Below are positions 1 to 33,517 of a stretch of 33,517 nucleotides of DNA, one piece after another. The stretch's first letter is position 1; every line of letters starts with the position of its first letter. Both the position numbers and the translations under genes were made by a program. The notes under the pieces were generated by a model. That model was given only the letters and a program-made list of their open reading frames with translations, was not told where the DNA came from and did not search any database. Source of the stretch: Candidatus Cacconaster merdequi (lineage in GTDB: Bacteria; Bacteroidota; Bacteroidia; Bacteroidales; UBA932). Where the stretch lies: contig JAGHVK010000026.1 in the NCBI GenBank assembly GCA_018064345.1, positions 1 through 33,517 of the forward strand, read 5' to 3'.

Positions 1-74
1 GGGGGTATAGCTCAGTTGGCTAGAGCACCTGCTTTGCAAGCAGGGGGTCGTCGGTTCGACTCCGACTATCTCCA
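1..74 (+). tRNA. tRNA-Ala (anticodon TGC)
   Basis: The sequence folds as a complete 74-nt tRNA. The acceptor stem GGGGGTA pairs with TATCTCC and contains the G3-U70 wobble that marks alanine tRNAs. The anticodon stem CCTGC/GCAGG (28-32 and 40-44) carries anticodon TGC at 35-37, and the T arm contains GGTTCGACTCC. The discriminator is A74; CCA is not encoded in full. In Bacteroidota this isoacceptor usually lies in the 16S-23S spacer, but here a terminator and a protein operon follow instead of 23S. What lies upstream is outside the window. Confidence 0.97.
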
Positions 75-81
75 CAGATTT

Positions 82-112
82 AAGGCGTACATTCATTTGT
101 CCGCCTTTTTTT
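82..112 (+). terminator. intrinsic terminator after tRNA-Ala
   Basis: AAGGCG (82-87) pairs with CGCCTT (102-107), and the stem continues after one mismatch as ACA/TGT with a TTCATT loop. A run of seven T follows (106-112). It starts only 8 nt after the tRNA and should end the transcript carrying it, so a downstream 23S is not part of this transcript. Confidence 0.85.
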
Positions 113-146
113 GTGCCCTTTTGCCAAAAGTATTTCTACTGTGACT

Positions 147-178
147 TTTGGCGTTATCCCGTTTTATTTGTAACTTTA
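147..178 (+). promoter_or_regulatory. Bacteroidetes-type promoter for the ior operon
   Basis: TTTG at 147-150 is followed after exactly 20 nt by TAACTTTA at 171-178, matching the TTTG/TAnnTTTG consensus at all but the last base. The predicted start of transcription near 185 leaves a short leader before the ATG at 208. Confidence 0.65.
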
Positions 179-207
179 CCAAGTTATTACGTAGTATCTT
201 CAAGGAT

Positions 208-1815
208 ATGGAAAATAAACGTTTATTGCTTGGTGATGAGGCGATTGCATTAGGTGCAATCCATGCGGGACTATCCGGTGTCTACGCATATCCCGGTACT
301 CCTTCAACTGAAATCACTGAATTCATTCAGGAAGATGGCTCTGCAAAGGGTCTGAATATACGTTCGAGATGGTGCACAAATGAAAAGACGGCAATGGAGG
401 CTGCTCTTGGAATGTCCTTCGCAGGAAAAAGAGCGCTCGTGTGTATGAAGCACGTGGGTATGAATGTCTGTGCCGATGCTTTTGTAAACAGTGCCATTAC
501 AGGTGTGAACGGAGGGTTGGTGGTGATAGCTGCTGACGATCCTTCGATGCATTCTTCACAGAATGAGCAGGATAGCCGCCATTACGGCAAATTTGCAATG
601 ATTCCTGTCTTCGAGCCTTCGAACCAGCAGGAATGCTATGAAATGATGAAGGAGGCGTTCTCTCTTTCTGAAGAGTTGAAGCTTCCTGTAATGATGAGAG
701 TGGTCACAAGGCTGGCCCATTCACGTTCTGTAGTGGTGACTGGCGAATCTTTGCCTCAGAATCCTCTCAATGCTGAGCATAATCCGCAACATTGGGTGCT
801 TCTCCCAGGAATCGCGAGACGCCAGTACTCTTCTCTGATTGAGAAGCAGGGGCGGATTGCGGCATTCTCGGACTCTTCCAGATTCAATTCTCTGAAGCAA
901 GGCCGCGGAGAAGGCATCATAGCCTGCGGAATCGGCTACAATTATGTGATGGAAGCTCTTTCCCATTCGGGCAAGGATGTATCGCTCCTGAAGGTCAGCC
1001 AGTATCCTGTCCCTGCCGAAAAGGTGAAGGAGATGGCGGCTTGCTGCAGTTCGATTCTCGTGGTTGAAGACGGGCAGCCTGTAGTGGAGCAGGATGTGAA
1101 GGGAATAGTAGGAGGTAACTTCAAGGTGGAAGGCCGTCTTACAGGAAGGCTTCCGCGTACCGGTGAACTGACCCCTGACAGTGTGGCCGCAGCACTCGGC
1201 ATAAATGGAGAGATTACATACAGCAAGGCTGAGAACGTAGCGGCAAGGCCTCCGCAACTTTGCAACGGCTGCGGTCACAGGGATGTCTATACCGCTCTCG
1301 GCAAGATACTTTCAGAATACAAGGATGCCCGTGTCTTCGGTGACATAGGCTGCTATACACTCGGTGCCCTTCCGCCGTTCAAGGCTCTTGACAGCTGTGT
1401 GGATATGGGCGCCTCGATAACGATGGCCAAGGGAGCTGCTGACGCGGGTGTGTTCCCGTCTGTGGCGATAATAGGCGACAGTACTTTCACCCACTCAGGC
1501 ATGACCGGCCTTCTCGATGCCGTGAATGACAATGCCAACATTACCATCGTGATTTCGGACAACCTCACGACAGGTATGACCGGAGGTCAGGACAGCGCCG
1601 GAACGAACAAGTTCGAAGCTATATGTCTTGGCCTTGGAGTGGATCCTGCGCACGTCAGGGTAGTTGTCCCGACTCCTGCCAATATGGAAGGAATAGTCGC
1701 GACCATCCGCGAGGAAATTGAGTATAAGGGCGTTTCAGTCATCATTCCGCGAAGGGAGTGTATGAAGACCCTGAACCGCCGCCTTCGCAAGGCAAGAGCT
1801 GAAAAACGTTCATAA
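208..1815 (+). CDS. iorA: indolepyruvate:ferredoxin oxidoreductase, alpha subunit
   Basis: The TPP-dependent subunit of the 2-oxoacid oxidoreductase that interconverts aryl-pyruvates with arylacetyl-CoA and CO2 using ferredoxin. Seen in the 535-aa product: an N-terminal pyrimidine-binding region (GVYAYPGTPSTEI, residues 24-36; NEKTAMEAALGMSFAGK), CNGCGHR at 352-358, GDIGCY at 378-383, and a TPP-binding stretch from GDSTF (423) to the SDN near 450. I chose ATG 208 rather than the upstream in-frame ATG at 148, because 148 lies inside the promoter and its extra 20 residues do not look like the family. The protein ends shortly after IIPRRECMK and lacks the cysteine-rich C-terminal ferredoxin domain of longer archaeal IorA proteins. 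It is the first gene of a ten-gene operon and lies 14 nt before iorB. Confidence 0.93.
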   Translation: MENKRLLLGDEAIALGAIHAGLSGVYAYPGTPSTEITEFIQEDGSAKGLNIRSRWCTNEKTAMEAALGMSFAGKRALVCMKHVGMNVCADAFVNSAITGVNGGLVVIAADDPSMHSSQNEQDSRHYGKFAMIPVFEPSNQQECYEMMKEAFSLSEELKLPVMMRVVTRLAHSRSVVVTGESLPQNPLNAEHNPQHWVLLPGIARRQYSSLIEKQGRIAAFSDSSRFNSLKQGRGEGIIACGIGYNYVMEALSHSGKDVSLLKVSQYPVPAEKVKEMAACCSSILVVEDGQPVVEQDVKGIVGGNFKVEGRLTGRLPRTGELTPDSVAAALGINGEITYSKAENVAARPPQLCNGCGHRDVYTALGKILSEYKDARVFGDIGCYTLGALPPFKALDSCVDMGASITMAKGAADAGVFPSVAIIGDSTFTHSGMTGLLDAVNDNANITIVISDNLTTGMTGGQDSAGTNKFEAICLGLGVDPAHVRVVVPTPANMEGIVATIREEIEYKGVSVIIPRRECMKTLNRRLRKARAEKRS

Positions 1816-1820
1816 GGAGG
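1814..1820 (+). promoter_or_regulatory. strong Shine-Dalgarno site for iorB
   Basis: AAGGAGG overlaps the iorA stop codon and lies 9 nt before the iorB ATG. Most genes in this window have no comparable site, as is usual in Bacteroidota, so this one supports the iorB start and suggests tuned translation of the two subunits. Confidence 0.6.
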
Positions 1821-32473: not shown

Positions 32474-32500
32474 GTCTTTCTTGCGATATTGGTGATAATC

Positions 32501-32528
32501 AGCCCGATCCTTTGGTCGGGCTCTTTTT
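32501..32528 (+). terminator. terminator after the Pro-rich protein gene
   Basis: AGCCCGA (32501-32507) pairs with TCGGGCT (32516-32522) around an 8-nt loop, followed by CTTTTT. It isolates the 23S transcription unit from upstream genes. Confidence 0.85.
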
Positions 32529-32596
32529 ATGCACATAGCGTCCTGATGCCTGGGGTGAATGTTTTTTCAAAAAAAATGAAAAAAAGATGAAAATAA

Positions 32597-32627
32597 TTTG
32601 GTATTAATAAAAAAGTGCTTACCTTTG
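32597..32627 (+). promoter_or_regulatory. strong promoter directly upstream of 23S rRNA
   Basis: TTTG (32597-32600), 19 nt, TACCTTTG (32620-32627): a full match to the Bacteroidetes consensus. The preceding 35 nt or so are almost all A and T (32560-32596), like an UP element. Transcription would start near 32633. No 16S or spacer tRNA lies between it and 23S. Confidence 0.85.
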
Positions 32628-32631
32628 CAGC

Positions 32632-32824
32632 CCGTTTCGGAAGAAACCTTATCGAAAGAGCGTTTGAAACGGTAGTTCATTGACTTATTGAGAGAGATAA
32701 CGAGGTAAAAAACTGTAAGCAAAAGATAGTTTGTTAACGAAGAAAGAGTTTTTCTGAGAAAACGTTAGCGGACTGCAATTTCAAAAAGCATAGTTGGTGA
32801 TGAAAGTCACTGACATGATTCTAA
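32632..32824 (+). other. 23S rRNA leader with boxA-like antitermination element
   Basis: The transcript leader contains CCGTTTC (32632-32638) able to pair with GAAACGG (32666-32672), an alternative small hairpin CGTTT-G-AAACG (32661-32671), and GTTCATTGAC (32675-32684), which resembles the boxA found in rRNA leaders and spacers. No tRNA and no coding potential are seen. The rest probably forms the pre-23S processing stem with sequence beyond the window. Confidence 0.65.
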
Positions 32825-33517
32825 GACGAAGGAAGAAAGAGCGAACGGCGGATGCCTTGGCTTCTATAGGCGAAGAAGGACGTGGTAAGCTGCGAAAAGC
32901 TGCGGGGATTGGCAAACACGAGTTGATCCGCAGATGTCCGAATGGGGAAACCCGCCGGGTTGAAGATCCGGCACTCGAGAGAGGGCGAACCCGGGGAACT
33001 GAAACATCTTAGTACCCGGAGGAAGAGAAAGAAAAATCGATTTCCAAAGTAGTGGCGAGCGAAATGGAAAGAGCCTAAACCGTGGTTGTTACGGCAGCCG
33101 CGGGGTTGTAGGACTGCAGAACGAGGATGCAAGTAACTGGAAGTGTCTGGAAAGACACATCGGAGAGGGTGACAATCCCGTACAGGTAAGATTGCATAGG
33201 AGTAGCGGAATCCTGAGTAGGGCGGGACACGAGGAATCCTGTCTGAATCCGCGGGGACCATCCCGCAAGGCTAAATACTCATAGAAGACCGATAGAGGAC
33301 AGTACCGTGAGGGAAAGGTGAAAAGAACCCCGAACAGGGGAGTGCAATAGAACCTGAAACCGTTCGTTTACAAGCGGTCGGAGCGAAAGCGACGGCGTGC
33401 CTTTTGGATAATCAGCCTACGAGTTGTTTCTGTCTGGCGAGGTTAAGTCCTTCAGGGACGTAAGCCGAAGCGAGAGCGAGTCTGAAGAGGGCGTTAAGTC
33501 GGACGGAACAGACGCGA
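32825..33517 (+). rRNA. 23S ribosomal RNA, 5' part (cut by window edge)
   Basis: About 690 nt of domain I. Conserved signatures include GGCGGATGCCTTGGC (32847-32861), GTGGCGAGCGAA (33052-33063), GAGTAGGGCGGGACACG and GTACCGTGAGGGAAAGGTGAAAAGAACCCC. The 5' end is set by aligning GGATGCC with its place in E. coli 23S and is good to a few bases. Translated frames across it are not genes. Confidence 0.95.

What the first reader, a model, noticed from the sequence alone, without database searches (positions are those of the whole stretch)
1..33517. Split ribosomal RNA operon: tRNA-Ala unit and 23S separated by more than 32 kb
Seen: tRNA-Ala(TGC) at the left edge is closed by an intrinsic terminator, and the 23S at the right edge starts from its own consensus promoter with protein genes, not 16S or tRNAs, upstream. 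Known: in most Bacteroidota tRNA-Ala(TGC) lies in the 16S-23S spacer, and unlinked 16S and 23S genes occur in some bacterial lineages. Inferred: the operon was broken between tRNA-Ala and 23S, and both halves acquired the missing terminator or promoter.
Basis: partly seen in the sequence, partly recalled or inferred. Interest (0 to 1): 0.75.

Follow-up and report, generated by a model that had tools for sequence, protein, structure and literature searches.

The report
Anciently split ribosomal RNA operon
In a family of uncultured gut bacteria, one ribosomal RNA operon appears to have been cut in two long ago, the 16S-tRNA half ending in a stop-like hairpin and the 23S half starting at its own promoter-like site thousands of bases away, so this is an inherited rearrangement rather than an assembly error.

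Summary
Confirmed. The window is one whole contig of a Candidatus Cacconaster-like MAG: tRNA-Ala(TGC) 1-75, a terminator-like hairpin, 32.7 kb of protein genes, a Bacteroidota-type promoter, and a 23S cut off by the contig end. Relatives show what lies beyond. Five genus mates carry tRNA-Ile-Ala (16S sequence in four), 7-16 kb of genes and 23S on one contig and strand. Two single-contig genomes of a sister genus carry 16S-Ile-Ala // 30 or 109 kb // 23S-5S beside two intact tRNA-less operons. Both halves on one contig were seen in five genera, unlinked 23S in 11. A -33/-7 promoter precedes 71 of 71 unlinked 23S but 0 of 30 linked; a terminator-like hairpin follows 35 of 36 tRNA-Ala rows but 0 of 18 linked outgroup copies. 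The nearest outgroup family read is linked, so the split probably arose in this family. In complete genome G042 the locus holds 16S-23S again, while the 16S beside Ile-Ala is gone. Expression is untested. New variant of a known kind.

The parts
1..75 (+). tRNA-Ala(TGC), last gene of the 16S-Ile-Ala half; 16S and tRNA-Ile would lie beyond the contig end
   Evidence: in relatives 16S-Ile precedes it
82..112 (+). intrinsic-terminator-like hairpin (AAGGCG...CGCCTT) plus T run
   Evidence: fold of 73-125: -16.3 kcal/mol, z -5.7; 35 of 36 family rows have one, 0 of 18 linked outgroup tRNA-Ala; not listed by the stricter scan
208..6822 (+). protein genes after the terminator: TPP/POR_N and POR subunits, aminotransferase, two AMP-binding ligases, ACT protein (ORF caller gives 148 as first start; 208 is the first ATG)
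   Evidence: the first two also follow tRNA-Ala in G001 and G002
6841..13164 (+). conserved core of the gap: GT2 glycosyltransferase, DUF4922-SpoIID protein, MFS permease, NamZ exo-muramidase
13241..28084 (.). genes without homologues at the same place in the other gap loci: four TlpA-like thioredoxin-domain proteins, TonB-dependent receptor/SusD pair, M16 peptidase, PLP decarboxylase
28264..31476 (-). conserved M20 peptidase and OPT oligopeptide transporter next to the split 23S
   Evidence: OPT lies in the gap on 10 of 10 spanning contigs read through
31607..32473 (+). DUF6515 protein
32597..32627 (+). promoter-like site of the 23S unit, TTTG-N19-TACCTTTG
   Evidence: sequence; family statistics
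32675..32786 (+). 23S leader homologous to the 3' half of an intact 16S-23S spacer, starting at a boxA-like GTTCATTGAC element
   Evidence: (75% identity)
32825..33517 (+). 23S rRNA, 5' part (model 1-718), cut by contig end

Best explanation
The window holds the gap of a conserved split rRNA operon. In Ca. Cacconaster and relatives the tRNA-bearing rrn operon exists as two units on one strand, promoter-16S-tRNA-Ile-tRNA-Ala-terminator and promoter-23S-5S, with 7-109 kb of ordinary protein genes between them. Both halves were seen together in five genera; the unlinked 23S half was seen in 11 genera of the family. Operons 16S-23S-5S without spacer tRNAs stay intact in the two single-contig split genomes and in one genus MAG. 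The break lies between tRNA-Ala and the boxA-like element that heads the 23S leader, so each half keeps its leader, and the 16S half keeps its own matched processing stem. Shown: gene order, conservation, promoter-like and terminator-like signals, near-identical rRNA copies in complete genomes, linked outgroups. Inferred: that both promoters are used, that transcripts end after tRNA-Ala, that the rRNAs enter ribosomes, and the molecular route of the split.
For: 11 of 11 gaps measured have both halves on the same strand (G049 from its fetched ends). Of 80 loci holding the OPT gene, 38 also hold a 23S 5' end and none a 16S. Of the 30 loci fetched, 28 have enough upstream sequence and 27 of these lack a 16S within about 1.5 kb; they span 11 genera and include the window. 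Promoter 71 of 71 versus 0 of 30 linked spacers. Terminator-like hairpin 35 of 36 versus 0 of 18 linked outgroup. Split and intact 16S/23S are 100% identical in G112, 99.5% and about 99.9% in G049. The split 16S leader pairs with its own trailer (z -7.8 and -7.7, 60 mononucleotide shuffles) and worse with the intact trailer. Outgroup loci linked in 23 of 26 with enough upstream sequence. Rooted 23S tree.
Against: The window itself lacks 16S, tRNA-Ile, 5S and most of 23S. Most loci are MAG contigs ending in rRNA, which favours recovery of unlinked flanks, so linked:unlinked counts are no genome census. Loci are related, not independent. The -7-only motif TAnnTTTGCA is less selective: 60 of 72 unlinked, but also 4 of 23 linked outgroup spacers. 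Terminator-like hairpins arise in 10.9 of 36 shuffles, the stricter scan missed the window's own, and G010 lacks one. The 23S processing stem is not significant. 23S counts in G112 and G049 are lower bounds (3 of 7-8 candidates scored). No expression data.
Confidence: 0.88

Rival explanations
1. Assembly artefact: the two contig ends are repeats wrongly joined to unrelated genes.
For: The window is a whole MAG contig with both ends at rRNA/tRNA repeats, in a MAG of 6.2% contamination. Some MAG 16S copies here look damaged (G130; G032 lacks about 75 internal bases against G112).
Against: The same arrangement occurs in assemblies of several genera and in two single-contig genomes, with conserved gap genes and a promoter-like site that linked spacers lack.
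Confidence: 0.03
2. A solitary extra or decaying 23S copy, unrelated to the tRNA-Ala unit.
For: Intact operons coexist in G112, G049 and G030.
Against: In both complete split genomes the split 23S has a matching 16S-Ile-Ala unit on the same strand; 16S count is 3 in each; the split 23S is 100% or about 99.9% identical to the intact copies and followed by 5S.
Confidence: 0.05
3. The gap is a mobile island inserted at tRNA-Ala.
For: tRNA genes are common integration sites (general knowledge). In G112 a second tRNA-Ala and an AbiEii gene lie just downstream of the first, and G028 also has two tRNA-Ala genes 1.6 kb apart.
Against: No second copy of the tRNA-Ala 3' end in the window; no integrase or transposase family among the 21 window proteins scanned; the core gap genes are conserved across genera.
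Confidence: 0.06
4. Two neighbouring operons lost opposite parts (23S-5S from the first, 16S from the second), instead of one operon being pushed apart by insertion.
For: The split 23S leader matches an intact spacer from the boxA-like element on in 6 of 6 comparisons; the element is an 18-nt exact direct repeat around 16S in G112 and G130; in G042 the same locus carries a full 16S-23S-5S, and in G130 a 16S with missing pieces before 23S.
Against: G049 and G042 lack a long exact repeat there. The rooted tree puts G042+G130 among split lineages, so their state may be a re-gain. Promoter motifs of this type also occur elsewhere.
Confidence: 0.37

Closest known systems
Unlinked rRNA genes (definition of Brewer et al. 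2020, seen only as quoted in passages of PMC8178347 and PMC7761764)
   Same: More than 1500 bp between 16S and 23S; here 6.8-109 kb where measured.
   Different: The split concerns one defined operon of a set, sits at an orthologous locus across genera of a Bacteroidales family, and leaves tRNA-Ile/Ala with 16S in most genomes read.
Mixed-type genomes (linked plus unlinked operons; passages of PMC7761764, and Cellulosilyticum lentocellum in PMC8178347)
   Same: G112 and G049 carry two intact operons and one split one.
   Different: The intact operons lack spacer tRNAs and the split one carries the only full-length tRNA-Ile match found.
Wolbachia / Buchnera 16S // 23S-5S split (titles cited in PMC8172020 passages; details recalled)
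   Same: 23S-5S as its own unit apart from 16S.
   Different: Those are reduced endosymbiont genomes, recalled as having single rRNA gene copies; the genomes here are 1.1-3.6 Mb and several carry more than one copy.
Standard Bacteroidales rrn operon 16S-Ile-Ala-23S-5S (e.g. G404, L331)
   Same: Same order of the parts.
   Different: Block of protein genes, terminator-like hairpin and a second promoter-like site between Ala and 23S.

Membership tests
Unlinked rRNA genes | 16S and 23S more than 1500 bp apart, or no 23S within 1500 bp of the 16S end | tested here: met
   Window: 32.8 kb upstream of 23S without 16S. Relatives with both genes on one contig: gaps of 6.8-109 kb
Mixed-type rRNA genome | linked and unlinked rRNA operons in one genome | tested here: met
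   Met in G112 and G049, single contigs. For the window's own genome inconclusive
Standard Bacteroidales rrn operon | tRNA-Ala followed directly by 23S | tested here: not met
Bacteroidota vegetative promoter | TTTG about 19 nt before TAnnTTTG (recalled consensus) | tested here: met
   window 32597-32627; 71 of 71 loci; activity not testable here
Intrinsic terminator | stable hairpin followed by a T run | tested here: met
   one search did not list it at its loop limit; activity not testable here
Functional rRNA copy | transcribed and present in ribosomes | not testable with these tools
   sequence identity with intact copies is indirect support only
Integrative element at tRNA-Ala | integrase and duplicated tRNA 3' end | tested here: not met
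   in the window only

The most novel reading that the evidence does not exclude
The locus is a reversible two-state rRNA module: a 16S segment can be lost from or regained at the 23S unit by recombination between boxA-like repeats or with another rrn copy, with loss or gain of the 16S beside tRNA-Ile/Ala balancing it, so lineages move between split and re-linked states while keeping equal 16S and 23S numbers.
Probability: 0.25. Interest if true: 0.75.

Novelty: new variant of a known kind. Interest (0 to 1): 0.62.

Why it matters
The papers seen report unlinked rRNA genes mostly from reduced genomes and certain phyla (passages of PMC8172020, PMC11261877). Here a Bacteroidales family of gut bacteria keeps one operon split while others stay intact, a natural comparison of linked and unlinked rRNA inside one cell, with leader, terminator and processing signals laid bare. 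Methods that amplify across the 16S-23S spacer would miss this copy. An equine study found unlinked genes only in reads assigned to Cellulosilyticum or Anaerocolumna (PMC8178347 passages), although Cacconaster species were named from horse faeces (PMC8957277 passages). The re-linked state in G042 makes the direction and route of such changes testable.

Tried and rejected
Artefact, lone pseudocopy and mobile-island readings were tested and set aside (see rivals). Family-model searches for 16S and 23S in the own genome found nothing, not even the known partial 23S, so their negatives carry little weight; the DNA query did find it. G030 contigs L010 and L018 (16S-Ile-Ala-23S) are only about 65-73% like family 23S over long pieces and probably foreign; they were counted among the linked spacers. 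Energy tests of the 23S processing stem were inconclusive. A first stem script timed out. Outgroup exceptions G297, G448 and G446 were looked at and not pursued. Brewer et al. 2020 is not held; I know it only through papers quoting it. No paper linking UBA932, RC9 or Cacconaster to unlinked rRNA was found in this library; supplements and papers outside the library were not searched. On re-checking, G130's 16S proved to lack pieces, so I lowered the two-operon-loss rival from 0.40 to 0.37 and the novel case from 0.30 to 0.25.
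Full report
WHAT IS THERE. The window is the whole of contig C47 of a 1.90 Mb, 120-contig MAG (completeness 83.95, contamination 6.22). tRNA-Ala(TGC) fills 1-75 and a 23S 5' part fills 32825-33517, cut by the contig end; no other RNA gene reaches Rfam's thresholds. The closest named relative of its OPT gene is Candidatus Cacconaster equi (92%). Cacconaster is assigned to Bacteroidales family UBA932 (PMC8957277, passages). The window's genus is thus by nearest relative and by the tool's genus label, not by a classifier of mine.

BEYOND THE EDGES, IN THE GENUS. 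The tRNA-Ala query matched all 40 genus genomes, partly through other tRNAs; with L040, loci from 31 genomes were read. Twenty of the 31 show a tRNA-Ile-tRNA-Ala pair; in 14 of these 20 the 16S 3' end lies just upstream, and in 0 of 20 is a 23S found in the flanking 1.5 kb. Contigs reaching both halves: G001 (L071), G013 (L080), G017 (L032, tRNAs but no 16S sequence), G021 (L038), G032 (L039) and the window (tRNA-Ala only); gaps 6.8-32.7 kb. G032 carries a near full-length 16S, about 75 internal bases shorter than in G112. In G031 (98% complete, 10 contigs) 16S-Ile and 23S lie at the ends of two different contigs of 386 and 469 kb, and tRNA-Ala is on a third. So tRNA-Ala does not stay with tRNA-Ile everywhere.

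COMPLETE GENOMES. Three single-contig genomes stand among the family matches. G112: 16S-Ile-Ala, 30.0 kb, 23S-5S on one strand, plus two 16S-23S-5S operons with 246-nt tRNA-free spacers. G049: the same with a 108.7 kb gap and two intact operons with 295-nt spacers. 16S count is 3 in each (all candidates scored); 23S count is at least 3 (3 of 7-8 candidates scored). G112, G049 and G042 each have one full-length tRNA-Ile match. Split and intact copies are 100% identical in G112; in G049 99.5% (16S) and 99.86-99.90% (23S). Within the genus an intact spacer is seen in G030 (16S 3' end-317 nt-23S-5S, L036); G030 also holds probably foreign rRNA contigs, but its L036 23S branches next to Cacconaster in the tree (87/95), and G010 has a 97% identical 23S-5S contig.

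DISTRIBUTION. In one search, 70 of 199 family genomes gave a 23S 5' match; 30 loci were fetched. Two had too little upstream sequence; 27 of the other 28, the window among them, have no 16S within about 1.5 kb, and one is an intact copy of G049. The 27 span genera g1, g2, g4, g6, g11, g12, g13, g14, g15, g18, g22. Both halves on one contig were seen in g1, g4, g11, g12 and g15. In 38 of 80 OPT loci from named records a 23S start lies nearby, none with a 16S; the tool gives no family for these. In the order-wide search (392 genomes, 92 with a match, 30 loci fetched), with extra outgroup stretches and exact duplicates removed, 23 of 26 outgroup loci are linked; L325 and L326 were too short to judge. 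The nearest family by 23S (f103, G404) has one linked 16S-Ile-Ala-23S-5S and one tRNA-less 16S-23S-5S. So both operon kinds probably predate the family, and it is the tRNA-bearing one that was split. Three outgroup loci lacked a recognised 16S (G297, G448, G446; in G446 Ile-Ala still sit before 23S); they were not pursued.

SIGNALS. After removing exact duplicates there were 72 unlinked candidates from the family or its OPT loci; one (G130, L300) has a 16S upstream whose 3' end my filter missed and was moved to the linked group. All 71 remaining have TTG, 18-22 nt, TAnnTTTG within 450 nt upstream of 23S; shuffles give 2.1 on average, at most 6; 0 of 30 linked spacers (7 counted as family, of which L010 and L018 are probably foreign, and 23 outgroup) have it. 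The -7-only motif TAnnTTTGCA was in 60 of the 72 unlinked, 0 of 6 family linked and 4 of 23 outgroup linked spacers. Of 36 family tRNA-Ala rows (the window counted twice), 35 are followed by a hairpin and T run (10.9 expected by shuffle), the exception being G010; 0 of 18 linked outgroup tRNA-Ala have one (1.4 expected). Eight of the 36 rows, besides the window's own two, show no tRNA-Ile beside tRNA-Ala; there a terminator says less. The split 16S leader and trailer pair strongly (z -7.8 in G112, -7.7 in G049, against 60 mononucleotide shuffles), and mismatched leader-trailer combinations are weaker (-53.9 against -31.9 and -30.7; -42.0 against -36.4 and -21.6 kcal/mol), so the split 16S unit has its own matched processing stem. 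The 23S stem gave no significant energy.

JUNCTION. In 6 of 6 split/intact comparisons, including the window against the intact spacer of G030, homology of the 23S leader with a spacer begins at or within 5 bases before a GTTC(A/T)TTGA element ("boxA-like" is my label from memory). The promoter-like site sits upstream of it. An 18-nt exact repeat of this element flanks 16S in G112 and G130 but not in G049 or G042, so repeat-mediated loss of 16S is possible in some lineages only.

GAP GENES AND RE-LINKING. The gap holds a conserved core: GT2, SpoIID/DUF4922, MFS and NamZ genes after tRNA-Ala, M20 peptidase and OPT before 23S. OPT is in 10 of 10 gaps read through, the GT2 gene in 8 of 10. In G042 (label g4, one contig) a full 16S-23S-5S operon stands downstream of OPT, where others have 23S without 16S, and promoter-Ile-Ala remain at the other end without 16S. 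G130 (g4) has the same order, but its 16S is 1342 nt and lacks pieces, among them most of the last 140 nt: an assembly fault or a damaged gene. G197, also labelled g4, is split. A 23S tree rooted on other families pairs G042 with G130 (100/100) inside the family, with g21, whose G077 also has an unlinked 23S, branching first at a weakly supported node (84/90); G197 does not group with them. An unrooted OPT tree also pairs G042 with G130 (100/100). A secondary re-linking is the simpler reading, but deep nodes are weak.

LITERATURE. Passages of PMC8178347, PMC7761764, PMC8172020, PMC11261877 and PMC8957277 were read. They establish unlinked and mixed types; the word stem Bacteroid does not occur in the main texts of PMC8178347, PMC7761764 and PMC8172020. 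No paper on this family's split was found in the searches named in Tried and rejected.

VERDICT. A real, inherited split of one rRNA operon, widespread in its family, both halves equipped with signals to be transcribed alone. New variant of a known kind. Expression and route of origin remain inferred.

Noticed in passing
window 6841-13164 and 28264-31476: The gap core (SpoIID-domain protein, MFS permease, NamZ exo-muramidase, M20 peptidase, OPT transporter) looks like a peptidoglycan-fragment salvage set that has stayed beside the rRNA halves in several genera.
   Followed up: partly
L227 3967-6399 (G112): Two tRNA-Ala(TGC) genes about 2.3 kb apart enclose an AbiEii-family toxin gene and a neighbour without Pfam match; G028 (L089) also has two tRNA-Ala genes 1.6 kb apart.
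   Followed up: partly
L333 (G297, family f79): A 23S with a TATCTTTGCA site 281 nt upstream and no 16S, in a family of which three other genomes read here keep tRNA-Ile/Ala just before 23S (two with 16S seen): possibly an independent split.
   Followed up: no
L097 (G022): 23S 3' end-5S followed 2.3 kb later by a solitary tRNA-Ala; several Cacconaster genomes have tRNA-Ala apart from tRNA-Ile, near tRNA-Asn and tRNA-Leu.
   Followed up: no
L276 9827-10043 (G042): tRNA-Ile-tRNA-Ala keep a promoter-like site and a terminator-like hairpin although no 16S lies between the site and tRNA-Ile.
   Followed up: partly
L300 17136-18477 (G130): A 16S of 1342 nt that lacks internal and 3'-end pieces, next to a 23S: assembly fault or decaying gene.
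   Followed up: partly
L010, L018 (G030): Distant linked rRNA operons in a 3.4 Mb, 400-contig genus MAG, probably foreign contigs.
   Followed up: partly
window 13241-28084: TonB-dependent receptor/SusD pair with four TlpA-like thioredoxin-domain proteins and an M16 peptidase; this insert makes the gap about twice as long as in most genus mates measured.
   Followed up: no
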